From Nostoc sp. T09 (GTDB lineage: Bacteria > Cyanobacteriota > Cyanobacteriia > Cyanobacteriales > Nostocaceae): DNA of 52,668 nt. Where the stretch lies: positions 1 through 52,668 of the forward strand of contig NZ_MTAV01000111.1 in NCBI RefSeq assembly GCF_002154695.1, in the 5' to 3' direction. The notes under the pieces were generated by a model. It saw only the letters and a list, made by a program, of their open reading frames with translations, made no database searches and had not been told where the DNA came from. Shown here in pieces: positions 9,397 through 52,668 of this stretch (position 1 is the stretch's first letter; each line of letters begins with the position of its first letter). A program made the translations under genes and the position numbers.

Positions 9397-10257
9397 TTAA
9401 TTAATTGAAGAACTCTCGCTATTGTGATTTTGCTGCTCTTCTTGTTTCAGCAGCAACATGTAGACTAGCCCAAAAATTAGGATACCTAAAACGCCATAGG
9501 AATAGGAGGCTTGTCCTCCGTGCCAGCTATCAAAGGCAGCTTTGTTGGTTCCTTCCATCACTGCCAGCATGGCAATCCTCACTCCATTGATCACAAATCC
9601 TAAGATAATGGCAAAAATCGGTATGAAGAACCGCTTGCTCTTAGCGATGGGAAACATTACCAGAGCAATAATTGAGATACCTAATATATAGTTGATTGTG
9701 TCTATTCCCGAACAGCTATGAACTACCTTGATGCTGCCAGTTGGTAGATAAATATTAACGCCAACATTTGTAACATCAAAGCCTGAGTACCACAAAAGCA
9801 ATGTAGCAAATTTGGCACTCAAAGGTGAAATATCAATTAATAAATCAGCAAGTACGCTGGGCACTCCTAAGAAAAACAGAATAATCAGTTCCTCCCAATA
9901 TTGCTTTAAGCCTTTGAAGCCCGAAGCCAACAAGCTGACACCAAAAGCAGAAGTAAAAGACAAAAGACGAAGGGTATGTTCGAGATTCTGAGTTGCACTC
10001 TGCCATAGCACCCAAATAATTAAGAGCAAGCCCACAATGCTGGAGAAAACATCACTTTCAAAGCGCAATGTATGTCGTTTGTCCCATAATAGGGAGCCTG
10101 TAGCGAACAAAAACAGAATACTCATGCCTAAATGGCCAACATCATCAGCTTTCCAAACTAAGGTAAGACAAATCGCTTCTAGCCCTGCGGTAATACTCAA
10201 GAGCCAGAATGGTTCATTCTTGAATAATTTGGGTGATATTAGGTCAGTAATGTTCAT
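9397..10257 (-). CDS. cyanobacterial-type exosortase
   Basis: The 286-residue polytopic membrane protein carries the three signature positions of exosortases: Cys182 in VVHSCSGID, Arg227 in INGVRIAMLA and His246 in SWHGGQA. Exosortases are membrane transpeptidases that recognise a C-terminal sorting tail (PEP-CTERM type), cut it and anchor or release the protein at the cell surface. About eight membrane segments surround these residues. The short, domain-free form fits the cyanoexosortases. No companion EpsI-like or system-associated gene flanks it, and no product in this window ends in a recognisable PEP-CTERM tail, so the substrates must be encoded elsewhere. It appears monocistronic. Confidence 0.8.
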   Translation of the reverse strand: MNITDLISPKLFKNEPFWLLSITAGLEAICLTLVWKADDVGHLGMSILFLFATGSLLWDKRHTLRFESDVFSSIVGLLLIIWVLWQSATQNLEHTLRLLSFTSAFGVSLLASGFKGLKQYWEELIILFFLGVPSVLADLLIDISPLSAKFATLLLWYSGFDVTNVGVNIYLPTGSIKVVHSCSGIDTINYILGISIIALVMFPIAKSKRFFIPIFAIILGFVINGVRIAMLAVMEGTNKAAFDSWHGGQASYSYGVLGILIFGLVYMLLLKQEEQQNHNSESSSIN

Positions 10258-37926: not shown

Positions 37927-39213
37927 ATGCAACTTTGGACACCCAATCAATCATTGCAAAACGGACGCTTTATTGTGCAAAAAGTCCTTGATAGCGGTGG
38001 TTTTGGTATTACTTACAGTGCCCTTGAACAACGCACAGGTCAATTATTTGTCATCAAAACCCTGAATCACCTGCAACAAACACGAGCAGACTTTGACGAA
38101 CAACAGGTAAAATTTATCAACGAAGCAGTGCGGTTAGCCCAGTGTAGTCATCCCCATATTGTGAAAGTTAACGAAGTCTTCAAAGAAGGTGAACTTTGGG
38201 TAATCGTAATGGAATATATTAATGGGCAAGATTTAGCTAATTATATTGATGAGCGTGGACAGTTATCAGAACTTGAGGCGCTACGCTACATAGAGCAAAT
38301 TGGACAAGCTTTAGAATATATCCATGCCAAGGGATTTTTACATCGGGATATCAAGCCCAATAATATTTTATTGCGACGCAGTACACAAGAAGCTGTATTA
38401 ATTGACTTTGGGCTAGTCCGTGAGTTTCAAGGCGGGAAGACGGGTAGCATGACAAATGCCAAAACTGAAGGTTATGCACCGATAGAACAGTATGAAAGAC
38501 GGGGAACTTTTGCTGCTTACACAGATGTTTATGCTTTAGCCGCGACAATGTATAGTTTGCTAACTGCGGAAGTTCCCTTACCAGCTAATTTTCGCAAAAG
38601 TGGTATAGCTTTACACCCGCCAAAGCAATTTAATTCAGCGATTAGCGACAGAGTGAATAAAGCAATTCTCCAGGGGATGGCGTTGAAAGTGGAAGAACGT
38701 CCTCAGACTGTGCGGGAATGGTTAGAATTACTCAATTCTAAATTGGAAGTTGACAGTCTCAAATCTGCTGTGGGGATGAACTACACGAGACTGCGTGACT
38801 TACTTGTAGTAGGGAAGTGGCGAGAAGCGGATGAAGAAACAACGCGTGTCATGCTAGCTGTAGCGGGGAGAGAAAAGGAAGGCTGGCTTCGAGTTGAAGA
38901 TATTGATAACTTCCCTTGCGAAGGCCTGCGCACAATAGACCAGTTATGGGTAAAATACAGCAATGGGTGCTTTGGCTTCTCTGTGCAAAAGCGCATTTAT
39001 CAAAGTCTGGGTGGAACCAGAGAATATAACTACGAAATTTGGAAAGCCTTCTACGTCGCAATAGGCTGGAGAAAGGACGGAACGTGGATGTACTATAAAG
39101 ACCTAACTTTTGACCTCACAGCACCAGTAGCCCACCTCCCTAAGGAATTTTGGTATTTTGGGGAAGGAGTTGTTTTAGGTCTGTTCTCTCGCTTCGAGAC
39201 TTGTAAACTTTAA
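37927..39213 (+). CDS. Ser/Thr protein kinase fused to a GUN4 domain
   Basis: The 428-residue protein has a complete eukaryotic-type kinase domain at residues 14-270: glycine loop LDSGGFGITY, Lys44 in VIKTL, catalytic HRD (139-141) with KPNN, and DFG (160-162), then TEGYAPIEQY in the activation region. Residues about 280-425 are a GUN4 domain (YTRLRDLLVVGKWREADEETTRVML, WLRVEDIDNFPCEGLRTIDQLW, FGFSVQKRIYQSLGG). GUN4 binds porphyrins and activates Mg-chelatase in chlorophyll synthesis, so the fusion may sense tetrapyrroles and phosphorylate targets. There is no membrane segment. Both domains look intact. It stands alone upstream of a toxin-antitoxin-like pair. Confidence 0.9.
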   Translation: MQLWTPNQSLQNGRFIVQKVLDSGGFGITYSALEQRTGQLFVIKTLNHLQQTRADFDEQQVKFINEAVRLAQCSHPHIVKVNEVFKEGELWVIVMEYINGQDLANYIDERGQLSELEALRYIEQIGQALEYIHAKGFLHRDIKPNNILLRRSTQEAVLIDFGLVREFQGGKTGSMTNAKTEGYAPIEQYERRGTFAAYTDVYALAATMYSLLTAEVPLPANFRKSGIALHPPKQFNSAISDRVNKAILQGMALKVEERPQTVREWLELLNSKLEVDSLKSAVGMNYTRLRDLLVVGKWREADEETTRVMLAVAGREKEGWLRVEDIDNFPCEGLRTIDQLWVKYSNGCFGFSVQKRIYQSLGGTREYNYEIWKAFYVAIGWRKDGTWMYYKDLTFDLTAPVAHLPKEFWYFGEGVVLGLFSRFETCKL

Positions 39214-39973: not shown

Positions 39974-40351
39974 CAACTTGATCGTGATGCAACAAAGTTT
40001 GAAGTACTCCAACACGATGTTGAAGACGATCAAAACGATATTGATGACGATCAACACGATATTGACGATGATAAATACAATGTTGATGACGATCAACACG
40101 ATGTTGATGACGATAAATACGATATTGACGACGATAAATACGATATTGATGACGATAAATACGATTTTCAAGTACTTCAACACAAAAAGTGGAAGTTGTT
40201 GCCCAGAGGTGATAAAGTCTGGATTCAATATGATGGTTGTGCCGAACCTTTAGCACAAGCACTGATATGTGCAGATGTACCTAAATAAGATATTGTATTA
40301 GCTTTCCATCCAGAAGAATTACGAAAATCTACGGGTTTTGCGCTGTCTTGA
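39974..40351 (+). pseudogene. decayed gene with seven heptapeptide repeats
   Basis: A frame open from just after a TGA reads QLDRDATKFEVL, then seven repeats such as KYDIDDD, QHDVDDD and QNDIDDD, and then a natural-looking tail (VLQHKKWKLLPRGDKVWIQY, CAEPLAQALICADVPK). It hits a TAA at 40286 and then continues for 20 more sensible codons to a TGA. No start codon opens the frame. I read it as the remnant of a gene whose 5' part is lost and whose end carries a nonsense change. I do not recognise the family. The long hydrophobic frame on the opposite strand is its shadow. Confidence 0.45.
40010..40156 (+). repeat. seven tandem copies of a 21-bp unit
   Basis: Consecutive units such as AAATACGATATTGATGACGAT differ by only a few bases and stay in frame, coding for (K/Q)(Y/H/N)(D/N)(I/V)(D/E)DD heptads. 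The seven copies are exactly 147 bp with no indels. Confidence 0.85.
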
Positions 40352-41331: not shown

Positions 41332-41358
41332 GAGACCATTTATAAAGTAAATGGTCTC
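41332..41358 (+). promoter_or_regulatory. perfect 11-bp inverted repeat enclosing a start codon
   Basis: GAGACCATTTA (41332-41342) and TAAATGGTCTC (41348-41358) are exact reverse complements around TAAAG. The ATG of the FHA-kinase gene lies inside the right arm, so in mRNA the start codon would be paired, and no ribosome-binding site is evident in the loop. As DNA it could be an operator. Confidence 0.65.
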
Positions 41359-42715
41359 TAAAGTTACCCTCACTATTACTAAAAGCCAACTTCCCGGAAG
41401 ACAATATACTTTTGATTCGCGCACTCTTTGTATTATTGGCAGAAGTAATGAATGCAATATCCAACTACCAGATGATGCAGAACATCGGACAATCTCCCGT
41501 TATCATTGCCTGTTAGATATTAACCCACCTGCAATTAGGATTCGGGATTTTGGCAGTAAAAACGGTACTTACGTCAACAATGAAAAAATCGGTCAGCGTC
41601 AACCCGATCAAACGCCAGAAGAAGCAGCGAAATTAAAATTTCCAGAGTATGATTTATGCTCAGGCGATGACATTAAACTCGGTAATACTATTTTTACACT
41701 TAATATTGATAATCCCGAAGAAATTATTATTCCTAACTTTTTTCCTCAGACAGTTAATGCGAATCAAGATTTAACCCAACCACCAAATTTTTTAGAGGTA
41801 ATTAAACGCTGGCTAGGTTTGGCGGCGAATGGTAATCAAAATTTGCAAATGATTCGCGGTTACAATCTCATCAAAATATTAGGGAAGGGTGGTTTTGGCG
41901 AGGTTTATTTAGCACAGCATCATACTTCTGGTAAATTTATTGCTTTGAAGGTAATGTTACCTGCGATCGCAGCCAATGAAGATGCTGTACAAAGGTTTTT
42001 ACGGGAAACCGAGAATACGAAAGCTTTGCAGCATCCCAATGTGGTGCAAGTGATCGATTATGGCTTTTTTGAAGGCATTTTCTTTTTTACAATGGAATAT
42101 TGCTCAGGCAGCACTGTTTGGGATTTAATGCAGCAGCAAGGTGGGAAATTAGCTGTTGATATTGCTGTCCCAATTATTCTGCAAGTTCTCAACGGGTTGG
42201 AATATAGCCACAATACAGAAATTCCTTATGTGAAATTAAAGGATGGTGGCTTTGGTAAAGGTAGGGGTTTAGTTCACCGCGATTTAAAACCGGGTAATAT
42301 ATTTCTCACCTACAATGATGGCGAATTAACTGCAAAAATCGAAGATTATGGTTTAGCTAAAGCATTTGATTTAGCAGGTTTAAGTGGGCAAACTATGACA
42401 GGAACTAAAGCCGGAACTCCTGTATTTCTTCCCAGACAGCAATTACGAAATTTTAAATATGTGCAACAAGATGTAGATATTTGGGCGACTGCGGCTTGTC
42501 TTGATAATATGTTGACAGGGACTTATCCAGGTAATTTTAGCGGCAATGACCCATTTTTGGCAGTGTTGCAAAATGATCCTGTACCAATTCGCCAACGTGA
42601 CACAAGTATTCCACCCAAGTTAGCAGAGGTGATTGATTTGGGGTTGTTAGAGAAGCCGGAGATTTACTTTAAGAGTGCAGTAGATTTTAAGAATGCCCTA
42701 CTAGCTGCATTTTAA
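41351..42715 (+). CDS. FHA domain fused to a Ser/Thr protein kinase
   Basis: The 454-residue protein has an N-terminal FHA domain (about 5-120: GR at 30-31, SRYHC at 49-53, NGTYVNNEKIG at 71-81), which binds phosphothreonine, and a kinase domain (about 169-454: LGKGGFGEVYLAQH, Lys200 in ALKVM, HRD at 309-311, KPGN). The DFG motif reads DYG (332-334), a conservative change. The substrate-side region GTKAGTPVFLPRQQL has an unusual activation segment. FHA-kinase fusions often control secretion systems or cell division. The gene is convergent with the peptide-export operon and is next to it, which hints at a link but proves none. Confidence 0.9.
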   Translation: MVSKVTLTITKSQLPGRQYTFDSRTLCIIGRSNECNIQLPDDAEHRTISRYHCLLDINPPAIRIRDFGSKNGTYVNNEKIGQRQPDQTPEEAAKLKFPEYDLCSGDDIKLGNTIFTLNIDNPEEIIIPNFFPQTVNANQDLTQPPNFLEVIKRWLGLAANGNQNLQMIRGYNLIKILGKGGFGEVYLAQHHTSGKFIALKVMLPAIAANEDAVQRFLRETENTKALQHPNVVQVIDYGFFEGIFFFTMEYCSGSTVWDLMQQQGGKLAVDIAVPIILQVLNGLEYSHNTEIPYVKLKDGGFGKGRGLVHRDLKPGNIFLTYNDGELTAKIEDYGLAKAFDLAGLSGQTMTGTKAGTPVFLPRQQLRNFKYVQQDVDIWATAACLDNMLTGTYPGNFSGNDPFLAVLQNDPVPIRQRDTSIPPKLAEVIDLGLLEKPEIYFKSAVDFKNALLAAF

Positions 42716-42794: not shown

Positions 42795-45719
42795 TCAAAG
42801 CATTTGTCTTGCCATTAGTTGAGCAAATAGCCCTGGTTGATTTGCCAATTGTTCAAAACTTCCCTGTTGCACAACTCTACCGCCTTGCAACACATAAATG
42901 CGGTGAGCATTACGAATGGTGCTGAGACGGTGAGCGATCGCAATTCGGGTGACTTGTAATCTTTCTAAACTTTCACTTACAATTGCCTGGGTTCTATTAT
43001 CTAAAGCACTCGTAGCTTCATCAAATAGCAATATCCGGGGTTTCAAGGCTAAAGCACGGGCAATCAACAGCCGTTGTCTTTGTCCTCCTGAAAGGTTAGT
43101 ACCCCCCTCACTGACAACAGTGTGCATCCCCATTGGCATGGTTTCGATATCATCAGCTAAACCGGAAGCACGGGCAGCTTCCCAAGCTTCATCCATTGTA
43201 ATTAAAGCGCCACTAGCAATATTATCGAAGATTGAACCTGACATCATGCGGCTATTTTGCATCACCACACCTAATTGTCGGCGAACAGCATTGACATCTA
43301 ACCCAGCTAAGTCTTGTCCATCGTAGTAAATAGTGCCAGATTCAGGGAGGTCAAAACCTAGTAGTAACCGGAACATAGTCGATTTGCCACTGCCAGAAGG
43401 ACCGACTAAGGCGATAAATTCTCCAGGTTCCGCCTTGATTGTCACATCATCTAAAATCAGGGGACCATCATCTCGATATCGGAAAATCGCATGGTCTACT
43501 AGCAGTTTACCTGTGAGTCTACCGGGGTCGGTTTTGCTAGCAGCTACTTCTGGTATGGCTTGGAGAATCGGCTGGGCACGTTTCCACGCAGGTAAGACTT
43601 GCAACACGTCTACTATTGTCGTGCTGAGGTTGGTAGCACCACCAATAAAGCTGCCAAAAGCCGCATTAAACGCGAGAAAAATCCCTGTAGATAAGCCTGT
43701 TCCTGGCTGTGATGTTTGCTGAATCATCGTAGCCGCCACCCAAAAGAGTAGAGCATTGGTTAAAGCTGGCAGTACTTTATTAATAACGGCAACAGAGTCT
43801 TCAATGCCTTGGGTACTCAGCATGAGTTTTAATTGATCGGTATACTGTTTACCCCAATAGGCAAAAGCCCTGGCTTCCGCGCCAGCAACTCGCAGCTTTG
43901 TGACGCCATTAATTAACTGCACCATCAAACCAAAGATTTGTCCTTCTTGTTCTAGTAAAGGTCGTACCTTGCGCACGGTGAGTGTACCAGAAACGACGGT
44001 GACACCAATATTCACAATCGCGATCGCACAAGCCAAGAGAGCTAAAGCACCACTGTAATAAAACAGTAGCCCCAAATTGAGCAAGGCAAAAAAGCTGGAG
44101 AAAATCGTTTTAAGTACCGTGCTACTCAGTTTATGGTGAATTTGCGAGATGGAACTAACCCGAGATTTCAAATCCCCAATCGAGTACTGGCGGAAAAAAG
44201 ACGCCTTCAGATTCAATAGCCGATCCCATACCGCCGCTTGGGTAGAAGATTCCGCAAACGTTTCTAGTCTGATGATTGCAAATGCCTGGGCAAGTTCAAA
44301 CAGAGTTTGTCCAAAAGCTGCTGCTAACAAACCCAAGGCGATTTGGATTAATAATGCCCGGTTAGCATCTGGAATAGCGTTATCTATCAGGATGGCAGTA
44401 GCTTGTGGTGTCAGCATCCCCAGTACGGTGGTGCAAACTCCAGTCACCAAAATTAACACTAGCTCCTTCTCATGACCTCGCACCGCAAACTGTACCAAAT
44501 CTTGGAGATTTAATTTTTTCTCAGGCAAAGGTCGATAAAATGCGTATGCTGTCGGGGCTAGCTTGGCAGCACTGCGAGCATCTACAGGAGTGCGGGTCAT
44601 AGCCCAAGGATCGTAAATCTCGTAACGATTGCCTGCAACCCGCAACAATGCCACAGGATGGTCGTCCTCCAGAGTGTAAGTCAGCATGGGGCTGGAGTCT
44701 TTTTTCCACCATTTATCAGTTAAGGAGACACGACGCATCCGAATTTGCGAAGCCCGCGCGATCGCTTCTAGGGGATCTTGTAACCGTTTGAGGTTTTCTG
44801 ACTTAGCTGGTGGACGAATAGTTATTCCCATCGCTTTGCCCACCGCACCAGTCGCCACAAGTAAAGCTTGGTCTGGATCGTCAACTGGTATCGCTCCCGG
44901 AGCCAAAGCTGTTTTCCGGCGTTGCAGCACGGAAGACAGTTCTCCCAACGTCTCCTCCATCACTTGATAATTGAGACGTTCCTTCTCCTGAAATCTACGT
45001 AACTCCGAGAACATCTCTGACTGCTCTAGCAGGTCGATAACCAAGAGAAAATGGTTTGTCAACCGAGATAAACTATCCAATAAGCCTTGAGTATTTTGGA
45101 TATCTAAGGTACTAGCAGTTGCCAGTTCAACTATGTCATCTGCTTGCAACCACATATCTTCACTCATGGGTAACAGTCCGGATGCAAAACTCAACGGCAC
45201 CTCCGCCAAACCCATCCAACTGGCGCATCCTTGCTGAATTTGTACCCAAGAGACTGCACCTAGTTGGGGCTGAAAGATATCACCTTTGCGTAAGGAATAG
45301 TAATTAATTGTCTCTGGTTTGACTGCCATTGCCGGAGCAGCGATTTCTGATATTGTCAAGCCTAGATGCTGAATCCAGCCCTCTAACATCTCCACAGCTT
45401 CTTCATCGGCATTAGTAATCAACTTGCTAAAATCTTCTGCCGATACTTTGACAACAGTTGTTTCCTCCATTGACACCGCTAGGATTTGGCGCTGTTCCCC
45501 GCTAGTAGAGGTAGCGAACATCGCTTCTTTGTCGCCGATGGTAAATAAATAGCGGCGAGAACCCTCCGGCACGCCATTCTTCACCGTCACGGCGAACATT
45601 GCCATCGAACCGGTTTTCACTAGCCAAACAGTCTGCGGGTCATTTAGGAGTATTGGCTCATTACCTTTAACAATATATTGTTCTGCTTGTGGAATGATGA
45701 GTCTGATTTGCTCTAGCAT
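42795..45719 (-). CDS. NHLP-type peptide export ABC transporter (permease/ATPase, CRP-like N-terminus)
   Basis: The 974-residue protein is the peptidase-free ABC subunit of NHLP-type bacteriocin export systems. Residues 1-130 form a CRP-like sensor domain (LLNDPQTVWLVKTGSMAMFAV, SRRYLFTIGDKEAMF). A long linker follows, then a six-helix permease (about 410-700) and an ATPase with Walker A GPSGSGKS (773-780), LSGGQ (876-880) and Walker B LLFDEA (897-902). It has no C39 peptidase. It is the last gene of the minus-strand operon, 200 bp after the C39 transporter; that gap contains a dispersed palindrome that may weaken readthrough. It probably forms a hetero-oligomeric exporter with the C39 subunit; the sensor domain may couple export to a signal. 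Confidence 0.88.
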   Translation of the reverse strand: MLEQIRLIIPQAEQYIVKGNEPILLNDPQTVWLVKTGSMAMFAVTVKNGVPEGSRRYLFTIGDKEAMFATSTSGEQRQILAVSMEETTVVKVSAEDFSKLITNADEEAVEMLEGWIQHLGLTISEIAAPAMAVKPETINYYSLRKGDIFQPQLGAVSWVQIQQGCASWMGLAEVPLSFASGLLPMSEDMWLQADDIVELATASTLDIQNTQGLLDSLSRLTNHFLLVIDLLEQSEMFSELRRFQEKERLNYQVMEETLGELSSVLQRRKTALAPGAIPVDDPDQALLVATGAVGKAMGITIRPPAKSENLKRLQDPLEAIARASQIRMRRVSLTDKWWKKDSSPMLTYTLEDDHPVALLRVAGNRYEIYDPWAMTRTPVDARSAAKLAPTAYAFYRPLPEKKLNLQDLVQFAVRGHEKELVLILVTGVCTTVLGMLTPQATAILIDNAIPDANRALLIQIALGLLAAAFGQTLFELAQAFAIIRLETFAESSTQAAVWDRLLNLKASFFRQYSIGDLKSRVSSISQIHHKLSSTVLKTIFSSFFALLNLGLLFYYSGALALLACAIAIVNIGVTVVSGTLTVRKVRPLLEQEGQIFGLMVQLINGVTKLRVAGAEARAFAYWGKQYTDQLKLMLSTQGIEDSVAVINKVLPALTNALLFWVAATMIQQTSQPGTGLSTGIFLAFNAAFGSFIGGATNLSTTIVDVLQVLPAWKRAQPILQAIPEVAASKTDPGRLTGKLLVDHAIFRYRDDGPLILDDVTIKAEPGEFIALVGPSGSGKSTMFRLLLGFDLPESGTIYYDGQDLAGLDVNAVRRQLGVVMQNSRMMSGSIFDNIASGALITMDEAWEAARASGLADDIETMPMGMHTVVSEGGTNLSGGQRQRLLIARALALKPRILLFDEATSALDNRTQAIVSESLERLQVTRIAIAHRLSTIRNAHRIYVLQGGRVVQQGSFEQLANQPGLFAQLMARQML

Positions 45720-45816
45720 CAGTCACTTTACTCCCCGGAAAAAGTTTTAATTTAAATTTTTTAGATAAAACTTACGTACATTTTCTAAATTATTGGCGGT
45801 TCTATACCCAGAACAT

Positions 45817-45833
45817 GGTGGGCACTGCCCACC
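45817..45833. repeat. dispersed palindrome GGTGGGCACTGCCCACC
   Basis: A perfect 8-bp-arm dyad between the two ABC genes of the export operon, the same family as at 7081-7101. Confidence 0.6.
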
Positions 45834-45919
45834 CTACAAATACCTTCGCGCACTTCGCGTCTTTGCGGTTCATTAATTTCATCCTTAATTTGTGCAACAC
45901 CAAAATTTTTTTGAACTTC

Positions 45920-48142
45920 CTAAAGTGCTTCTCCTTCACTACGAATTAATCGCAAATATGCACCTTCAACTTCCTTTAATTCATCATGTGTGCCCCGTTG
46001 CACGACTTTGCCCTTTTCCATGACAATAATTTCATCACAATCGCGAATGGTGCTGAGGCGGTGCGCCACGATAATACAAGTACAACCCCGTTGGCGGAGT
46101 TTGCGATCGATGATTTTTTCTGTTTCACTATCAAGGGCGCTGGTGGCTTCATCCATCACCAGAATCGCCGGATTATTTACTAAAGCGCGGGCTATTTCCA
46201 ACCGCTGACGTTGTCCGCCACTTAAGTTAGCTGCCCCTTCTAACAGTTGGGCACCATAGCCGCCTGGTAAGGAAATCACAACATCGTGAATAGCCGCATC
46301 TTTACAAGCACGGATTAAATAGCTATCCGGAACGGTGGTATCCCAAAGTGTTAAGTTATCTCGCACACTCCCAGCAAACAGAAAAATATCCTGCTCTACT
46401 AGAGCCAGAGAATTGACTAAAATTTGTCGGGGAATTTGCGATCGCGTTTGACCATCAAACAAAATGTCTCCCTGCCAAGGTTCATACAATCCCGCTACTA
46501 GTTTGGCTACGGTAGACTTGCCAGAACCACTCCCCCCGACCAAGGCGACTCGCTGCCCTGGTTTGAGAGAAAAATTAAAGTTTTCAATTAATGGTTGACC
46601 AATGCGGTTGTAGCCAAAGGTAACATTGTGTAAATCGACATATCCTTGCAGACGCACAACAGGGTTTTCGGCGGAAGCGAACTGGATATTTTCCCCAAAT
46701 CTCTGTACCTCTCGATCTACTTGTGCATCTGTGGGGTTGCGTAAGACATCATCTAACCGCGTGATATCGCCTTCCACTCTCTGGAGGTCGCTTCCTAGGT
46801 TAACAAGATTATTTACAGGTAGTAAAAATTGTTGCATTAGCCCCTGAAACGCCACTAGCATCCCAATACTGAGATGCCCATCGATAACTCTGAGACCACC
46901 GATGACAATTAGTAGCATGGATGACATGGTAGTTAGGAAAGATGGCAAGACTCCCAAAGTCTGGTTTGTCACATCCATTTCCTGTTGAGAGTTGACTGAC
47001 TTGGCATAGTAACCAGCCCAACGGGAAAAGAAATCTGATTCCAAGCCTGATGCTTTTAGGGTTTCCATACTCTGAAGACCAGAGATGGACACACCAGCAA
47101 CTTTTCCTTGATCCTGTTGCAATCTCATGTTGGCATCGATGCGCCGCCGAGCTACCCACTGCAATGCTAGGAGGTTGATGGCGACAAAAGCTACACCAAT
47201 TGAGGTGAGTACTTTGTCATATTGCAACATCACCACTCCATAAAAAATCACCGTCACGACTGCGATCGCAGTTGTCGCTAATCTCCCGGAAAGAATGCTA
47301 GCTAAGGAGTCGTTAAGGTTAACGCGGCTGCTGATTTCTCCAGCAAATCGTTGATCGTAAAAACTGACTGGGAGGCGGAGAATGTGCCAGAGAAACTGAC
47401 TCGACATCCCCACAGACAGCTTGATTTTCATGCGGCGCAGGGATTGTAATTGCAGTAAGGTCAAAAATCCCGTGACGCAAGCTGTGATCAAAATTCCCAA
47501 AATCAGCGGTGATAACCATTCCTGGCGACGCTCAATCAAAACATTATCGACAAACACCTGGGCAAATGTGGGCATCGCCAACCCAGGAATCACCAATAGC
47601 AAACCTGCCAGCACACAATAAGCCAGCGCCCACAAGGAAAACCGCAATCGTTGCCATAAAGCCTGGATAATGCTGGGTTTGCTTCCCCCTTTTTTGAAAT
47701 CCGGCCCAGGCTGTAAAACCAGGACTACACCAGTGTAGGCATTGCTGAATTCTTCTATGGAGATGTGACGCGGGCCGCTGGCGGGGTCATTGAGATAAAC
47801 GCGCTGTTTGTTGTATCCCTCTACTACTAGGAAATGGTTGAAGTTCCAAAACACGATAAAGGGACATTCCATTTCCATCAGCTGGTTCAACTCTGCCTTA
47901 AAACCTTTGGCATTTAATCCGTAGTTACGACCAGCATTGAGGATATTGGAGGCTTTACTCCCATCCCGCGATACCCCGCAATCTTGACGCAGTTTTGCTA
48001 AGGGGACAATGCGACCGTAGTAACCCAGAATAATTCCCAAAGCCGCTGCACCACATTCTACCGCTTCCATTTGCAGCAGCGTCGGGGTACGACGGCGAGC
48101 GCCTTTACGTTTCAGGAGTTTTGGCAATTTGGGCAGCGACAT
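45920..48142 (-). CDS. NHLP-type peptidase/permease/ATPase ABC transporter (C39)
   Basis: The 740-residue protein has an N-terminal C39 peptidase domain with the triad Cys30 (EAVECGAAAL), His103 (FNHFLVVEG) and Asp119 (LNDPASG). This domain cuts double-glycine leaders. Next are a six-helix permease (about 165-440) and an ATPase with Walker A GGSGSGKS (536-543), LSGGQRQR and the Walker B MDEATSALD. It is the processing and export engine for the GG-leader peptides encoded upstream. The ATG I use directly follows the stop of the HlyD gene; a GTG five codons earlier would overlap that stop by 14 bp. Either way the two genes are translationally coupled. Peptidase residues are all present, so it should be active. 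Confidence 0.93.
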   Translation of the reverse strand: MSLPKLPKLLKRKGARRRTPTLLQMEAVECGAAALGIILGYYGRIVPLAKLRQDCGVSRDGSKASNILNAGRNYGLNAKGFKAELNQLMEMECPFIVFWNFNHFLVVEGYNKQRVYLNDPASGPRHISIEEFSNAYTGVVLVLQPGPDFKKGGSKPSIIQALWQRLRFSLWALAYCVLAGLLLVIPGLAMPTFAQVFVDNVLIERRQEWLSPLILGILITACVTGFLTLLQLQSLRRMKIKLSVGMSSQFLWHILRLPVSFYDQRFAGEISSRVNLNDSLASILSGRLATTAIAVVTVIFYGVVMLQYDKVLTSIGVAFVAINLLALQWVARRRIDANMRLQQDQGKVAGVSISGLQSMETLKASGLESDFFSRWAGYYAKSVNSQQEMDVTNQTLGVLPSFLTTMSSMLLIVIGGLRVIDGHLSIGMLVAFQGLMQQFLLPVNNLVNLGSDLQRVEGDITRLDDVLRNPTDAQVDREVQRFGENIQFASAENPVVRLQGYVDLHNVTFGYNRIGQPLIENFNFSLKPGQRVALVGGSGSGKSTVAKLVAGLYEPWQGDILFDGQTRSQIPRQILVNSLALVEQDIFLFAGSVRDNLTLWDTTVPDSYLIRACKDAAIHDVVISLPGGYGAQLLEGAANLSGGQRQRLEIARALVNNPAILVMDEATSALDSETEKIIDRKLRQRGCTCIIVAHRLSTIRDCDEIIVMEKGKVVQRGTHDELKEVEGAYLRLIRSEGEAL

Positions 48143-48143
48143 A

Positions 48144-49586
48144 TCAATAAATCCCACTCCAGGATTTCAGGATAGGTAACACAAAGGTAATGGGTGCTTG
48201 TTCTTCGATAGTGACTCGCACAGAGGTGGTGGTTCCCGGAGACATTTTGACTTGGGGACCAGTTGAAGAAGACCATTGATAGCCGCTGAAGGTGGCAGGA
48301 TCGGGCTGAAGTTCTGCTAAAACTTGAATTTGTGGTTCTGAGCTTACTAGACTGCCGACAATGTCGGGATTACCAACTAGACTAGCTGCGGCTTCTTTGG
48401 TCACAGGGAAGGGTGAAACATTGGTAATAGTACCGACAATACCACCAAATCGTTCCCGCTTGACTGTGGAAGGAGTGATTTGTAACTTCATGCCTTTTTG
48501 CACTTTTTTACCTTCACTCACTGGTAAAAATGTCACTCCCAGCAATTTAGCAGAGGACTCTTGGGCTTCGATAGAGCCGATGCGGCTACCGGGAGAGAGA
48601 AGTTGCCCGGAAGTTACAGTCAGTTCTAAAATGCGTCCGGTGCGATCGCTCTTAATCTCGCTACTACCTGTTAATTTTCGTTGCAGTTCGGCAATACCCC
48701 GTTTCAAATCTTGAATTTGATTGGTGCGGTTAATCGAAGTTTGAAAATTTTGTTCGCTGAGAGTTTTTTCCTTAGCATCCAATTGTTTTAACTGTGTTTT
48801 CAAGTCGGTGATTTGTCCCAGATTCTCGCGGTAAGACTTTTCTGCCTGAACTTGGTTAATATCTAGTTGTTTTAATTGGCTTTCAATATTGGCGATTTTG
48901 GCGATGCTATCGAGGTAAGTTTGTTGGGCTTCTAAAACCTGATCGGCGGAAATTGCTCCTTCAGCTTTCAGCGCTTTGCGGCGTTCGAGTCTATCTTTGA
49001 GAGTAGGAGCTAAAGACTTAGCTTCTTCCCAACGTTGCTGTAAGTTGGTTCGTTGCTGGGCGATCGCGCCGATATCCTTATCTCTGATAATTGGACTCAG
49101 AGATTGAGTTTCAACTAGCCGTTGTTGTAATCCTAAACGCTGCTGGGCGATCGCTCTGACTTCCAATTCACTGCGCTGACCCTGAAGTGAATTAGCGTTG
49201 AGGTCTTGGGCTTCTAATTCTGCAAGTTTGGCTTGCTGCTGGAGGAGTTGCTTGTGTAGTTCATCTTGGTCGATTGTGGCTATAACTTGTCCTTTCTTCA
49301 CAAAATCGCCAACACGAACATTTACTACCTTTAACTTCCCTTCGACAGCGGGGAATTGCAATGGTAGAACCTTACTGGGATAGACAAGTACACCCCTACC
49401 TTCTACCGTAATTGGAATCCGACCCAAAATACTCCAGGCCAGTCCTGCTGCAACCAAGGTCCCTAGAGCAGCCAAGGGTAACCAATTCATCGGACTGACT
49501 ACTTGCATGATCTGGTCTAAGCGCTCGGGAGAGGATGAACGCTCTAAAGCTTGTTTGCGAAACAGGTTGTTCCTGTGAGTGACCAT
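48144..49586 (-). CDS. HlyD-type adaptor of the NHLP peptide export system
   Basis: The 480-residue protein has one N-terminal membrane anchor (about 35-54), a biotinyl-lipoyl-like half motif (VVNVRVGDFVKKGQVIATID), a long coiled-coil hairpin (about 110-310), the second lipoyl half (SDRTGRILELTVTSGQLLSPGSRIG) and a beta-barrel C-terminal region. This is the periplasmic adaptor layout of type I secretion. The family-like C-terminus ends in a short hydrophobic stretch (ITFVLPILKSWSGIY). It links the inner-membrane ABC exporter with an outer-membrane channel such as TolC, which is not in this window. Clear GGAAGG ribosome-binding site. Confidence 0.92.
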   Translation of the reverse strand: MVTHRNNLFRKQALERSSSPERLDQIMQVVSPMNWLPLAALGTLVAAGLAWSILGRIPITVEGRGVLVYPSKVLPLQFPAVEGKLKVVNVRVGDFVKKGQVIATIDQDELHKQLLQQQAKLAELEAQDLNANSLQGQRSELEVRAIAQQRLGLQQRLVETQSLSPIIRDKDIGAIAQQRTNLQQRWEEAKSLAPTLKDRLERRKALKAEGAISADQVLEAQQTYLDSIAKIANIESQLKQLDINQVQAEKSYRENLGQITDLKTQLKQLDAKEKTLSEQNFQTSINRTNQIQDLKRGIAELQRKLTGSSEIKSDRTGRILELTVTSGQLLSPGSRIGSIEAQESSAKLLGVTFLPVSEGKKVQKGMKLQITPSTVKRERFGGIVGTITNVSPFPVTKEAAASLVGNPDIVGSLVSSEPQIQVLAELQPDPATFSGYQWSSSTGPQVKMSPGTTTSVRVTIEEQAPITFVLPILKSWSGIY

Positions 49587-49743
49587 TTAATACCTTCCTA
49601 ATTTATCCAAAATATGCATGGGATGTAGAGTCAAAGTCCATGCAAAGCTGTGAAGTTAAATACTGTTTTAAATACAAACTCGAATATTAATTTCCCAGAA
49701 ATGAAACAAAACTTTAATGAGATCGTCTACATTGTGTCTGGGT

Positions 49744-50041
49744 GAAGGCAGAAGGCAGAAGGCAGGAGGCAGAAGGCAGGAGGGAAGGAAAAAGGTAGTT
49801 TAATGGGGATTGTGGGCGAATTAGAAGTAATACCTTTCACTATCCTTAAATCCCGCCGTCATCATAGAATCGTGCTGTTGCACATAGGCGCATAGCAGCT
49901 TCCCGCAGGGTAGGCAGGCTACTCTGCGGGAACGTCTTTGACAAACGCAGGCTCAGAAATTCAGCCTGCGAAGACATAGGAATAAGCTTTTTCTTCCTTG
50001 TCCTCCTGCCTCCTGCCTTCTGCCCTCTGCCCTCTGCCTTC
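49744..50041. repeat. imperfect ~50-bp inverted repeat flanking a palindromic element
   Basis: The left arm (49744-49795) is a GAAGGCAGAAGGCAGGAGG-type run; the right arm (49987-50041) is its near complement and abuts the stop of the CRP-like gene. Between them is a palindrome at 49900-49932 (TTCCCGCAGGGTAG / CTACTCTGCGGGAA, 13 of 14 pairs). This block fills the 457-bp gap between the CRP-like and HlyD genes. No gene is evident. Confidence 0.65.
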
Positions 50042-50043
50042 AC

Positions 50044-51141
50044 TTAACTCCGGCGAATTCTTTTAAGCATCCAATCAAATCTGGCTCCAGCTAGCGCCAC
50101 CTGAGCTAAAAAATCGGAACTCAGTTCATTTTCATATTGTGAGCTTTGATCTAAAGATTGATCTTTGCTGTAACTGAGTCTGCCATAACCAAGACGACTG
50201 ACAATTGCCCGCTGTTTATCTGCTAGCAACACTGCAAGTACTCGGTAAAAACGTGCAGCAAAAGGTAAATCGTGTAAAAGCTTTGCCGCTATTCGCCATT
50301 GAGGAATGGATAATACCCAAGAGTCTTCCGCAGCTTTCACAGAAAAAGAAGGTGGAGGCGCTTCGATAAAAGGTGTTTCTCCCACAATGTCGCCTCGGGA
50401 TAACCTAGCAAACTCACGTTCTGGAGATTCGCCACCTTCCAAACTTGAAAATGCCCTAGCTAAAGGATTGCGATCGTCTTCTGAAGCTGAAAGTGTTAAT
50501 TTTCCTTCTAATAAAATATGCAGCGCCTCGACAGGTCTACCACCAGGAATGAGCACAGTACCTGCGGTAATTTTGCTCACTGTGCCGGCAACAACCAACC
50601 AATCGATATCGCTATCACGTAATTCTGCAAAGATAAATAAGATTTCTCTAAGTTGCGGTTGACTAAGAACAAGTGTGCTATTACCTAGCTGACTGATGAT
50701 TTGCTCTAGTCTGTCTGATAGCAGAATCGCACTTGCTCGATAAAGATGAGCTGCGAAACTGATATCTTCTTTTAATTTTGTCGCTAGCTGCTTTTGCGGA
50801 ATTGCTAATACCAGTGAGTTAGTCAGCGCTTTCATAGTAGTAGAAGGTAGATAGGTATCGAGAAAGGGAATTTCTCCTACCATATCTCCGCTTGATAATC
50901 TCGCAATCTCACGCCCTGACATTTCACCACCTTCTAGGGCAGCAAAGGCACGACCTAAAGGATTATTATCCGGTTGTGAGAGAGAAACTATTAATTCTCC
51001 ATCCAATAAAATATATAGTGCATTTACAGGTTCGCCTTGACGGATAAGAACTTTGCCTGCGGCAACTTCTTCCTTAGTACCTGTGGTCAACATCCAGTCG
51101 ATATCGCTATTACTCAGTTCCTTTAGCAGAACTTCTCTCAT
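50044..51141 (-). CDS. tandem CRP-like (cyclic-nucleotide-binding-fold) protein of the export operon
   Basis: The 365-residue protein consists of two clearly duplicated CRP-like domains, about 1-165 and 173-340. Each has SDIDWL/M, GTxxxITAGTVLI, VEALHILLEGKL and NPLxRAFxxLEGGExxxREIARLSxGDxVGExPF. In both, the stretch where cyclic-nucleotide binders have a conserved Arg-Ala (PxRxA) reads PSTTMKA or PPSFSVKA, so cAMP binding is doubtful. No DNA-binding helix-turn-helix follows; the C-terminus (VALAGARFDWMLKRIRRS) is short and basic. Together with the CRP-like N-terminus of the last ABC protein, it suggests a dedicated sensor or scaffold. It starts with a GGGAG site eight bases upstream. Confidence 0.85.
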   Translation of the reverse strand: MREVLLKELSNSDIDWMLTTGTKEEVAAGKVLIRQGEPVNALYILLDGELIVSLSQPDNNPLGRAFAALEGGEMSGREIARLSSGDMVGEIPFLDTYLPSTTMKALTNSLVLAIPQKQLATKLKEDISFAAHLYRASAILLSDRLEQIISQLGNSTLVLSQPQLREILFIFAELRDSDIDWLVVAGTVSKITAGTVLIPGGRPVEALHILLEGKLTLSASEDDRNPLARAFSSLEGGESPEREFARLSRGDIVGETPFIEAPPPSFSVKAAEDSWVLSIPQWRIAAKLLHDLPFAARFYRVLAVLLADKQRAIVSRLGYGRLSYSKDQSLDQSSQYENELSSDFLAQVALAGARFDWMLKRIRRS

Positions 51142-51360
51142 AATTTAACTCCCTGATGTTTGTAAGGGCGGGAGAGTTTTGTCGGTGGTTGTAAGTACCC
51201 AAAATCAGGAATTGAAAACTGAGTTGGTTTGCTCTGTTCACCTTGATCCATCTTAATACTGGCTGAATGTTTTGCTGAATGCAGATATTCACGGAACAGA
51301 ATTCCCAGTCCCAAAAAATCCGATAATACTTGATTTGATTCGCTTTGCTCTACTGTTAAG

Positions 51361-51567
51361 TTATATACTTATCGTAATTAAATGTAAAGCGGTGGTGATT
51401 TTATTCACAGACTTGATAACTGAATCGGGATGACTTTTCGCTACAAACTTCACGTCTTCTTGAGAGTAAGAGCTAGAAATCGAAACGTCCTTACCACCAG
51501 CAACAGCATTTAATTCCTCCTCATGTAATTCAACGACTTTACTATAATTAATGTATTGCTCTGACAT
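51361..51567 (-). CDS. double-glycine precursor peptide 1
   Basis: The 68-residue peptide has a leader ending in ELHEEELNAVAGG (residues 13-25) followed by a core of about 43 residues rich in Ser, Lys and Val, with no cysteine. C39 peptidases cut after such Gly-Gly motifs, so the encoded C39 transporter gene in the same operon is the obvious processor. The ATG has AGGAG six to seven bases upstream. The core contains no Cys, so lanthionine or thioether cross-links are impossible. The peptide activity is unknown; a bacteriocin or signal are the usual options. Confidence 0.8.
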   Translation of the reverse strand: MSEQYINYSKVVELHEEELNAVAGGKDVSISSSYSQEDVKFVAKSHPDSVIKSVNKITTALHLITISI

Positions 51568-51652
51568 GATTGACTCCTTGATTGGTTATTTAGGGTAAAA
51601 AAATGAATTGAATTTATAGGAGAATTAGTTAGATGAATTAATATCTGCTCTC

Positions 51653-51901
51653 CTAGCTAGACTGACCAAATTGACTAGGTGTGTCTCCCAAAAATAAGCC
51701 CTGAATAGCAAAAGTTCTGATATCTCGCGTTGCAATTAAAGAACTTGTAGAACTACCGTTAGGGCCAGACTGAGTATTTTGAAGAATTACGCGATCACTT
51801 TGCTCAAAAAAGGTAGCAGCAAAGAAGAAATTGAAACCACCTGCAATCATATCTAGTTCTTCATCGGCTAATTCGATAGCAACTTTATTTTCATCTAACA
51901 T
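51653..51901 (-). CDS. double-glycine precursor peptide 2
   Basis: The 82-residue peptide has leader ELADEELDMIAGG (residues 10-22) and a 60-residue core beginning FNFFFAATFF, hydrophobic at first and then polar. The core holds the motif QNTQSGPNGSST, which recurs in the incomplete peptide at the right edge as QNTQSGPQGSST. No cysteine. The ATG has AGGAG six bases ahead. The aromatic stretch could insert in membranes. Confidence 0.82.
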   Translation of the reverse strand: MLDENKVAIELADEELDMIAGGFNFFFAATFFEQSDRVILQNTQSGPNGSSTSSLIATRDIRTFAIQGLFLGDTPSQFGQSS

Positions 51902-51990
51902 AGCTTACTCCTATGTGTATATTGATTTTTTTAATAGAAACAGAAGTTTAATACTAAAAAAATATTAATTAGATTAAATAACCTCTGCTA

Positions 51991-52194
51991 CTAAGTCAGC
52001 GTATACTTCTTGTTGCGTTCATTTTCCATCCATCTGGAAGTACCATCCTGAAAAAGAGATTTTTTTATTTCTTTAAAATGCTTGTAACCCTCATGTTCAT
52101 TTAACTTATCTACAACCAGTGAATCAGAGCCACCTGCAACTACATCTAATTCTTGCTCAGATAATTCGATAGCGTCTAGATTTTCATTTGACAT
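51991..52194 (-). CDS. double-glycine precursor peptide 3
   Basis: The 67-residue peptide has leader ELSEQELDVVAGG (residues 10-22) and a charged 45-residue core (KLNEHEGYKHFKEIKKSLFQ) predicted to be an amphipathic helix, with no cysteine. The ribosome-binding site is GGAAAGAG. The leader is almost the same as in the neighbours but the core is unrelated, which is typical of a locus that diversifies cargo behind a conserved leader. Confidence 0.8.
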   Translation of the reverse strand: MSNENLDAIELSEQELDVVAGGSDSLVVDKLNEHEGYKHFKEIKKSLFQDGTSRWMENERNKKYTLT

Positions 52195-52309
52195 AACTTA
52201 CTCTTTCCTTTGTAAAGACTGATTTTGATTCTAATAAAAGCAGAGGTTTTATCTGCAAAAAAAGTTATTTAGTAGATTAACCTCTGCTATTTAATTAGTC
52301 ATTGGAATT

Positions 52310-52516
52310 TTAATAATATACTACATCCCCTCCAGTGGGAGGAAAAGGATTAGGTATAGTTCCATCCCAAGAACTTGGAAATTTTACTTCTGGTAATTGT
52401 TTGAATATATTGCCAGGAGGGAGAGGATTGGGAGCAAACGATTCATCTGCACCACCTGCTACTACCTCTAGTTCTTGCTCAGATAATTCAATGATGGTTT
52501 GATTTTCAATTAACAT
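52310..52516 (-). CDS. double-glycine precursor peptide 4 (proline-rich core)
   Basis: The 68-residue peptide has leader ELSEQELEVVAGG (residues 10-22) and a proline-rich 46-residue core (PNPLPPGN, PSSWDGTIPNPFPPTGG) ending in VVYY, with no cysteine. I used the ATG with GGAG seven bases upstream; a TTG two codons earlier is also open. Proline-rich cores are unlike the other precursors here. Confidence 0.78.
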   Translation of the reverse strand: MLIENQTIIELSEQELEVVAGGADESFAPNPLPPGNIFKQLPEVKFPSSWDGTIPNPFPPTGGDVVYY

Positions 52517-52547
52517 ATTCAACTCCTATATTTATGTTTCCTAAGAG

Positions 52548-52668
52548 TTAGAGACCTAATCCAATAAAGTGAACAGCACTAGTATTGATTTTTTGCTGTG
52601 CTACTGTGGAAGTTGTCGAACTACCTTGTGGACCAGACTGGGTATTTTGTCCAACGATTAAAGTATCG
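52548..52668 (-). CDS. double-glycine-type precursor peptide 5, 3' part only
   Basis: The frame enters from the right edge and its last 39 residues are visible, ending GLGL. It contains IVGQNTQSGPQGSST, almost identical to part of the core of precursor 2, so it is probably the same type. The leader lies outside the window, so the Gly-Gly motif is not seen. The spacing and strand fit the series. No cysteine in the visible part. Confidence 0.7.
   Translation of the reverse strand, partial: DTLIVGQNTQSGPQGSSTTSTVAQQKINTSAVHFIGLGL

What the first reader, a model, noticed from the sequence alone, without database searches (positions are those of the whole stretch)
42795..52668. NHLP-type secretion operon with five cysteine-free double-glycine precursors
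The sequence shows, on one strand, at least five small genes in a row with a conserved ELxEExLxxxAGG leader or matching core, a CRP-like protein, an HlyD adaptor, a C39-ABC exporter with its triad intact and a second ABC exporter. NHLP systems are usually discussed with modified peptides, but none of the visible cores has a cysteine and no modifying enzyme is in the window. This may be an unmodified multi-peptide secretion system of unknown purpose. Its right border is not seen.
Basis: partly seen in the sequence, partly recalled or inferred. Interest (0 to 1): 0.75.

Follow-up and report, generated by a model that had tools for sequence, protein, structure and literature searches.

The report
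Cyanobacterial Gly-Gly peptide export operon
A Nostoc-type cyanobacterium carries an operon that should trim and export a set of small cysteine-free peptides; this kind of gene cluster is already known, but its peptides may be conserved extracellular building blocks rather than the antibiotics they are named after.

Summary
On the minus strand lie four complete Gly-Gly precursors and the 3' part of a fifth, cut by the contig end, then a double cNMP-domain protein, HlyD, a C39-ABC exporter (C35/H108/D124) and a second ABC exporter. The precursors have no cysteine in the part present; no LanM, YcaO or radical-SAM hit lies on the contig. It is a member of a known kind: NHLP export cassette (TIGR03794/03796/03797) plus TIGR03896, precursors wholly or partly of NCBI's 'CTB family bacteriocin' (NF038167), layout as group V of Wang et al. 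2011. The right neighbour is probably contig C82, which ends in a CTB gene behind a divergent LuxR-type regulator; one relative holds this order uninterrupted, and 17 ORFs scanned in C82's last 20 kb include no RiPP-type modification enzyme. New here: cores under purifying selection (dN/dS 0.14 and 0.26 against two relatives); a CTB core predicted as one long beta-hairpin; a second peptide type kept beside the cNMP gene in seven genomes. I favour an extracellular structural role, as for the EbfG biofilm peptides, over a bacteriocin, at moderate confidence.

The parts
52548..52668 (-). p5: last 39 codons of a CTB precursor (core only), cut by the contig end
   Evidence: NF038167 34.7 bits over profile 36-72; translation
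52310..52516 (-). p4: Gly-Gly precursor, Pro-rich core
   Evidence: leader ELSEQELEVVAGG; NF038167 30.3 bits, leader part only, below cut-off 32; core found elsewhere only in Nostoc sp. 106C among the small ORFs held
52236..52291 (-). intercistronic hairpin between p4 and p3
   Evidence: 13-nt arms, 92% complementary; folding z -2.7, and -3.8 for the 106C counterpart
51991..52194 (-). p3: Gly-Gly precursor, charged core
   Evidence: NF038167 33.4 bits, leader part only; core found elsewhere only in 106C among the small ORFs held
51653..51901 (-). p2: full-length CTB precursor, core predicted as a beta-hairpin
   Evidence: NF038167 72.7 bits over all 72 positions; AlphaFold2
51361..51567 (-). 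p1: precursor next to the cNMP gene, core unlike CTB, weakly helix-like
   Evidence: NF038167 26.7 bits, below cut-off; positional relatives in six other genomes
50044..51141 (-). bimodular cNMP-binding protein, no DNA-binding domain found
   Evidence: TIGR03896 306.6 bits, cut-off 161; PF00027 two stretches
48144..49586 (-). HlyD-type adaptor
   Evidence: TIGR03794 399 bits, cut-off 156
45920..48157 (-). C39 peptidase-ABC exporter, overlaps the HlyD gene by 14 nt
   Evidence: TIGR03796 1175 bits, cut-off 853; PF03412; C35/H108/D124
42795..45719 (-). second ABC exporter without C39 domain
   Evidence: TIGR03797 1040 bits, cut-off 709; no PF03412 match

Best explanation
It is a cyanobacterial group V (NHLP-cassette) export operon. 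Precursors are made with a short acidic Gly-Gly leader, the C39 domain cuts after GG while exporting, and the two ABC exporters with HlyD carry the cores across the envelope; the cNMP-domain protein probably tunes export. The cargo is a mixture of cysteine-free peptides, probably unmodified: several CTB peptides (predicted beta-hairpins), one conserved peptide of another type (p1) and two found only in the nearest relative. Their most likely role is outside the cell, as conserved matrix or surface building blocks like EbfG1-4 of Synechococcus elongatus, rather than as a weapon. Shown here: genes, families, active-site residues, absence of LanM/YcaO/radical SAM on the contig, selection on the cores, the structure prediction. 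Inferred: cleavage, export, lack of modification, contig order, and the extracellular role.
For: All four exporter-side genes exceed their curated cut-offs, and the layout equals group V (PMC3140520). Cores against Nostoc sp. 106C (p1-p4): 7 nonsynonymous and 13 synonymous changes, dN/dS 0.14 (p = 4e-5 against neutrality), leaders 0.86; against Goleter (p1, p2, C82 copy) cores 0.26. AlphaFold2 puts the p2 core into one hairpin (strands 23-46 and 49-72, GG at 21-22), block means of pLDDT 88-94 over residues 31-70; a member of another subfamily, with 15 sequences that exclude the window's type (12 of the 15 also in the first alignment), gives a hairpin with the turn at the same P-N. In the 52 of 80 loci with the cNMP gene within 600 bp of hlyD, 125 of 133 detected precursors have cysteine-free cores, and none of the 24 loci with two or more precursors has a LanM hit. 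Tandem near-identical copies occur in several relatives. Precedent: EbfG1-4, four tandem Gly-Gly proteins needing the C39 transporter PteB, biofilm function, EbfG1-3 amyloid-forming (PMC4997328 part 1, PMC9981879 passages).
Confidence: 0.42

Rival explanations
1. Unmodified class II-like bacteriocins: a multi-peptide cocktail that harms competing cyanobacteria, as the family name says.
For: Family names in NCBIfam; LuxR-type regulator beside the probable first gene; induction of one CTB operon in P-starved Nodularia, read by its authors as allelopathy (PMC9846622); p1 has a weakly helix-like amphipathic core (z 1.9 at 100 degrees, one of 20 single-peptide tests); some CTB peptides next to the cNMP gene in relatives end in cationic tails such as FAKLFGRR.
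Against: No immunity gene was recognised; the cores are conserved, not hypervariable; CTB cores average slightly negative net charge (-1.2, sd 3.7, n=60); I met no tested activity of this family in the search listings and passages I saw.
Confidence: 0.3
2. RiPP modified in trans: enzymes encoded elsewhere in the genome act on these cores before export, as proposed for LanM in Prochlorococcus.
For: The genome has one LanM (C108, on the contig of another C39-ABC), one YcaO (C71) and 29 radical-SAM hits; p2 has 15 and the C82 copy 14 Ser/Thr in the core; related cassettes have LanM in 8 of 80 loci, and L122 has radical-SAM genes.
Against: No cysteine, so no lanthionine; none of the 24 loci with two or more such precursors has a LanM hit in the DNA held, which is at most 10 kb on each side.
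Confidence: 0.13
3. Secreted signal peptides for filament or colony behaviour, with the two-component regulator as part of the circuit.
For: A LuxR-type response regulator is divergent to the precursors on C82, in 106C contig C227 and in the contiguous locus L116; in L116 a phytochrome-like histidine kinase gene lies next to it; the C39 exporter HetC serves cell differentiation in Nostoc and its cNMP domain binds ppGpp (PMC10986499).
Against: Several parallel peptides of different kinds and tandem near-identical copies suggest amount rather than information; no receptor was recognised, and no histidine kinase among the 17 C82 ORFs scanned.
Confidence: 0.1

Closest known systems
Group V bacteriocin gene clusters of cyanobacteria (Wang, Fewer, Sivonen 2011, PMC3140520; example Npun_R1804)
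   Same: HlyD, short C39-ABC, extra ABC without C39, bimodular CAP_ED protein, several Gly-Gly precursors, no LanM in the cluster
   Different: That paper counts 11 NHLP, 10 N11P and 16 other among 37 group V precursors and reports very little core conservation overall; here the precursors are neither NHLP nor N11P and the cores are conserved between relatives
NHLP export cassette (Haft et al. 2010, PMC2887384, passages seen)
   Same: TIGR03794, TIGR03796 and TIGR03797 all present above cut-off
   Different: Precursors are neither NHLP nor Nif11 type, and no tailoring enzyme is clustered
CTB family bacteriocin, NF038167
   Same: p2, the C82 copy and the p5 remnant match in the core; p3 passes by its leader
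   Different: p1 and p4 fall below the cut-off; p3 and p4 share only the leader
EbfG1-4 / PteB of Synechococcus elongatus (PMC4997328, PMC9981879)
   Same: Tandem small Gly-Gly proteins, C39 exporter, no modification mentioned in the parts I saw
   Different: No sequence relation detected; a cluster of another group (the table of PMC3140520 gives this species one group I and one group III cluster, no group V); function there shown by experiment, here inferred

Membership tests
Wang 2011 group V | bimodular protein of two CAP_ED (cNMP) domains | tested here: met
   TIGR03896 306.6 bits and two PF00027 stretches
Wang 2011 group V | short C39-ABC, extra ABC without C39, and HlyD | tested here: met
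Wang 2011 group V | no LanM in the cluster (else group IV) | tested here: met
   the only PF13575 hit of the genome is on contig C108, so none on C54 or C82
Wang 2011 group V | C39 exporter falls in clade V+VII of their tree | not tested
   no tree with their sequences was built
NHLP export cassette (TIGR03794/03796/03797) | all three models above curated cut-off, adjacent | tested here: met
NHLP or N11P precursor families | match to TIGR03793 or TIGR03798 | tested here: not met
   neither is listed for the four complete precursors at E<=1
CTB family bacteriocin (NF038167) | score of 32 bits or more | tested here: met
   p2 72.7, p3 33.4 (32.0), p5 remnant 34.7, C82 copy 86.2; not met by p4 (30.3) and p1 (26.7)
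EbfG matrix proteins | sequence relation to EbfG1-4 | tested here: inconclusive
   S. elongatus, one of the 14 control genomes (named), did not ring with NF038167 at E<=1; no direct comparison was possible
EbfG matrix proteins | fibril or amyloid formation, biofilm phenotype | not testable with these tools
   needs bench work
Bacteriocin | antimicrobial activity and immunity | not testable with these tools
   no immunity gene recognised, but such genes are often unrecognisable

The most novel reading that the evidence does not exclude
The 'CTB family bacteriocins' of heterocyst-forming cyanobacteria are not bacteriocins but a family of secreted beta-hairpin peptides that assemble into extracellular fibres or sheath, made in bulk from tandem genes, with the conserved p1-type peptide next to the exporter genes as an accessory (anchor or nucleator). 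Group V clusters of this type would then be matrix-export operons.
Probability: 0.27. Interest if true: 0.65.

Novelty: new member of a known kind. Interest (0 to 1): 0.36.

Why it matters
CTB matches occur in 30 of 58 genomes searched among own and relatives and in 44 of 386 sampled genomes of the phylum, own included, often in arrays, and they are named bacteriocins although I met no tested activity. If the cores are conserved structural peptides, a block of 'antibiotic' annotation in cyanobacteria is misleading, and the question how filamentous cyanobacteria build sheath and colony matrix gains a concrete, deletable set of genes.

Tried and rejected

CRP-type transcription factor reading of 50044-51141: rejected, as no DNA-binding domain was found.

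Promoter and terminator scan of 49500-52668: 5 promoter-like sites against 7.1 expected and 3 terminator-like against 2.3; uninformative. PHROGs: four precursors, best E 0.064. Plasmid search: HlyD relatives in 24 records, all under 60% identity; no further lead. A first leader pattern missed ELSEQELDVV-type leaders and was widened; one search used a still wider one. Phylum search scored at most 14 candidates per genome, so its counts are lower bounds.

Literature: full-text searches. I saw parts 1-3 of 5 of PMC3140520, part 1 of 5 of PMC4997328, passages of PMC9981879, PMC9846622, PMC9679502 and PMC2887384, and outline, abstract and passages of PMC10986499. Others only as search listings. One search was wasted: its underscored names matched unrelated words.

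Full report
WHAT IS THERE. The window is a whole contig (C54, 52,668 bases) of an 8.25-Mb genome in 270 contigs. The nearest named relative returned was Nostoc sp. 106C (HlyD 98% identical; records of the own genome may be left out there). On the minus strand, in order of transcription, lie a precursor remnant p5 (52548-52668), p4, p3, p2, p1, a 365-aa cNMP protein, HlyD, a C39-ABC exporter overlapping HlyD by 14 nt, and a 974-aa second ABC exporter. Stretches that look like ribosome-binding sites precede p1-p4 (by eye). The leaders recur with surrounding DNA: an 88-nt stretch covering leader and start region of p2 is repeated at 73% and 70% identity in p3 and p4, whose cores did not match that of p2, so leaders seem to have been copied onto different cores.

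WHAT IT IS. The exporter genes score above the curated cut-offs of TIGR03794, TIGR03796 and TIGR03797, and the cNMP protein above that of TIGR03896. The precursor family is NF038167 'CTB family bacteriocin': p2 matches in full (72.7 bits), p3 by its leader (33.4), p4 (30.3) and p1 (26.7) fall below the cut-off of 32, and the p5 remnant scores 34.7 over the core half. None of the four complete ones matches the NHLP or Nif11 precursor models at E<=1. The set of genes is group V of Wang, Fewer and Sivonen (PMC3140520, parts 1-3 of 5 read), where bimodular CAP_ED proteins and the extra ABC exporter are named for this group. The finding is therefore a member of a described kind.

RIGHT BORDER. Contig C82 (88,535 bases) ends in a CTB gene on the plus strand (from 88302) whose core is nearly the same as that of p5, behind a divergent LuxR-type response regulator. 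In 106C the same regulator (97% identical) stands with CTB copies at the start of contig C227, and another contig, C101, starts with a CTB copy followed by the orthologous operon. In L116 (the same contig as L102) the order regulator, precursors, cNMP protein, HlyD, C39-ABC, ABC2 is uninterrupted; there a phytochrome-like histidine kinase gene adjoins the regulator. I infer that C82 runs into C54 and that tandem CTB copies broke both assemblies. Seventeen ORFs in the last 20 kb of C82 were scanned with Pfam: protein kinases, an AAA_26 protein, an M20 peptidase, a translation GTPase, PRPP synthetase, Uma2, HD domain, GST, polysaccharide deacetylase, DUF309, ferredoxin-thioredoxin reductase, DUF58, T2SSE-type ATPase, one ORF without a match, the regulator and the precursor (no Pfam match); no RiPP-type modification enzyme. 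In the genome the single LanM hit is on C108, the single YcaO hit on C71, and of 29 radical-SAM hits none is on C54 and one is on C82 at 4.7 kb, more than 80 kb from the precursor. Twenty further ORFs of the window were scanned: no RiPP-type enzyme was named, five of the twenty had no match, and not every ORF was scanned.

RELATIVES. A scan of species genomes for HlyD relatives kept the best 80 of 313 loci. In 52 of 80 the cNMP gene lies within 600 bp upstream of hlyD; 34 of these 52 have at least one Gly-Gly precursor within 6 kb upstream and 24 have two or more; 133 precursors in all, 8 with cysteine in the core. LanM hits (tblastn with the one LanM of this genome) lie in 8 of 80 loci: 4 of the 52, 2 of 13 with a distant cNMP gene and 2 of 15 without one upstream; none of the 24 with two or more precursors has one. 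The precursor pattern was tuned to CTB-like leaders, and flanks are at most 10 kb and often shorter, so both counts are limited. In L117-L121, close relatives of the exporter, no such precursor was found upstream of the exporter genes, and L122 has two radical-SAM genes and a Nif11-domain peptide on the opposite strand. The exporter is thus not tied to one cargo.

SELECTION. Against 106C, the four complete cores carry 13 synonymous and 7 nonsynonymous changes (dN/dS 0.14; p = 4e-5 against neutrality), the leaders 3 and 10 (0.86). Against Goleter (p1, p2 and the C82 copy) cores give 0.26 and leaders 0.38. The leader/core contrast is significant only for 106C (Fisher p = 0.03 and 0.32). For scale, the cNMP protein and HlyD are more constrained still (0.06 and 0.04 against 106C, 0.07 and 0.11 against Goleter). 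So the secreted part is kept. p3 and p4 cores, however, were found only in 106C among the small ORFs held.

STRUCTURE. AlphaFold2 with 45 CTB precursors (alignment) predicts for p2 a short leader helix (13-19) and two long strands, 23-46 and 49-72; block means of pLDDT are 88-94 for residues 31-70 (74 for 21-30, 56 for 71-80), mean 74.9, pTM 0.40. The first strand begins at the residue after Gly-Gly, and the turn (P47-N48) lies in the conserved GPxG. A member of another subfamily (L187), with 15 sequences that exclude the window's type but of which 12 were also in the first alignment, gives strands 39-57 and 60-78 with the turn at P58-N59, block means 80-90 over 41-70, mean 65.6, pTM 0.31; here the 14 residues after Gly-Gly are disordered with pLDDT under 50. 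Structure searches gave only weak matches. Hydrophobic alternation is lower than in shuffles, which speaks against a membrane-spanning hairpin and does not decide about stacked fibres.

A SECOND PEPTIDE FAMILY. p1, next to the cNMP gene, has a core unlike CTB. A profile of the p1 cores of the window, 106C and Goleter found as its best other hits, among 3,773 small ORFs (number, copies in overlapping loci included), L123 (E 0.0019), L125 (0.0032), L071 (the same gene as in L097; 0.022) and L124 (0.065), with the next at 0.16. In all of these the ORF is the precursor nearest the cNMP gene. With the window, that is seven genomes. The single matches are weak; their shared position is the stronger argument.

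MECHANISM AND RANKING. Export after Gly-Gly cleavage is the safe part, though inferred. For the role outside the cell I rank an extracellular structural function first (0.42), bacteriocin second (0.30), in-trans modified product third (0.13) and signal fourth (0.10). The precedent for the first is EbfG1-4 with PteB (PMC4997328 part 1; PMC9981879 passages): small tandem Gly-Gly proteins whose motif is typical of secreted antibiotics, needed for biofilm, EbfG1-3 forming amyloid. This is likeness of design; descent is not shown. The precedent for nucleotide control of export is HetC, whose cNMP domain binds ppGpp (PMC10986499); for the protein here it is inference only. Against my ranking, the one expression report for CTB genes that I saw (PMC9846622) reads them as allelopathic.

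Noticed in passing
window 49744-50041: Heptamer repeats GAAGGCA and, 200 bp further, TTCTGCC in opposite orientation, in the 457-bp gap between the cNMP gene and hlyD; the gap is 427 bp in 106C and 72 bp in Goleter, so this may be a small inserted repeat element.
   Followed up: partly
window 40010-40165: Tandem array of a 21-nt unit (7.2 copies, TRF), open in reading frames on both strands.
   Followed up: no
L055 (G000:C104) 719-1734: A second CTB array of three genes in the same genome; none of the genome's 11 C39-peptidase hits lies on this 25-kb contig, so its exporter is on another contig.
   Followed up: partly
L027 (G009:C38) 612-1713: Four CTB precursors with identical protein sequence in tandem, pointing to recent duplication or gene conversion.
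   Followed up: no
L122 3813-6805: Two radical-SAM genes and a Nif11-domain peptide gene on the strand opposite to a close relative of this export cassette.
   Followed up: partly
L116 2695-6182: A phytochrome-like histidine kinase gene (GAF, PHY, HATPase domains) convergent with the LuxR-type regulator that stands before the precursors: light might control the operon.
   Followed up: partly
L159, L163, L169, L175, L181, L182, L187-L190, L192, just upstream of the cNMP gene: The CTB precursor nearest the cNMP gene has a C-terminal extension, mostly ending in a cationic tail (for example FAKLFGRR), unlike the other copies.
   Followed up: no
window 9397-10257: Exosortase (EpsH family) gene; its sorting targets were not looked for.
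   Followed up: no
window 37927-39213 and 41351-42715: Two Ser/Thr protein kinase genes, one with a GUN4 domain and one with an FHA domain, next to and convergent with the operon.
   Followed up: no
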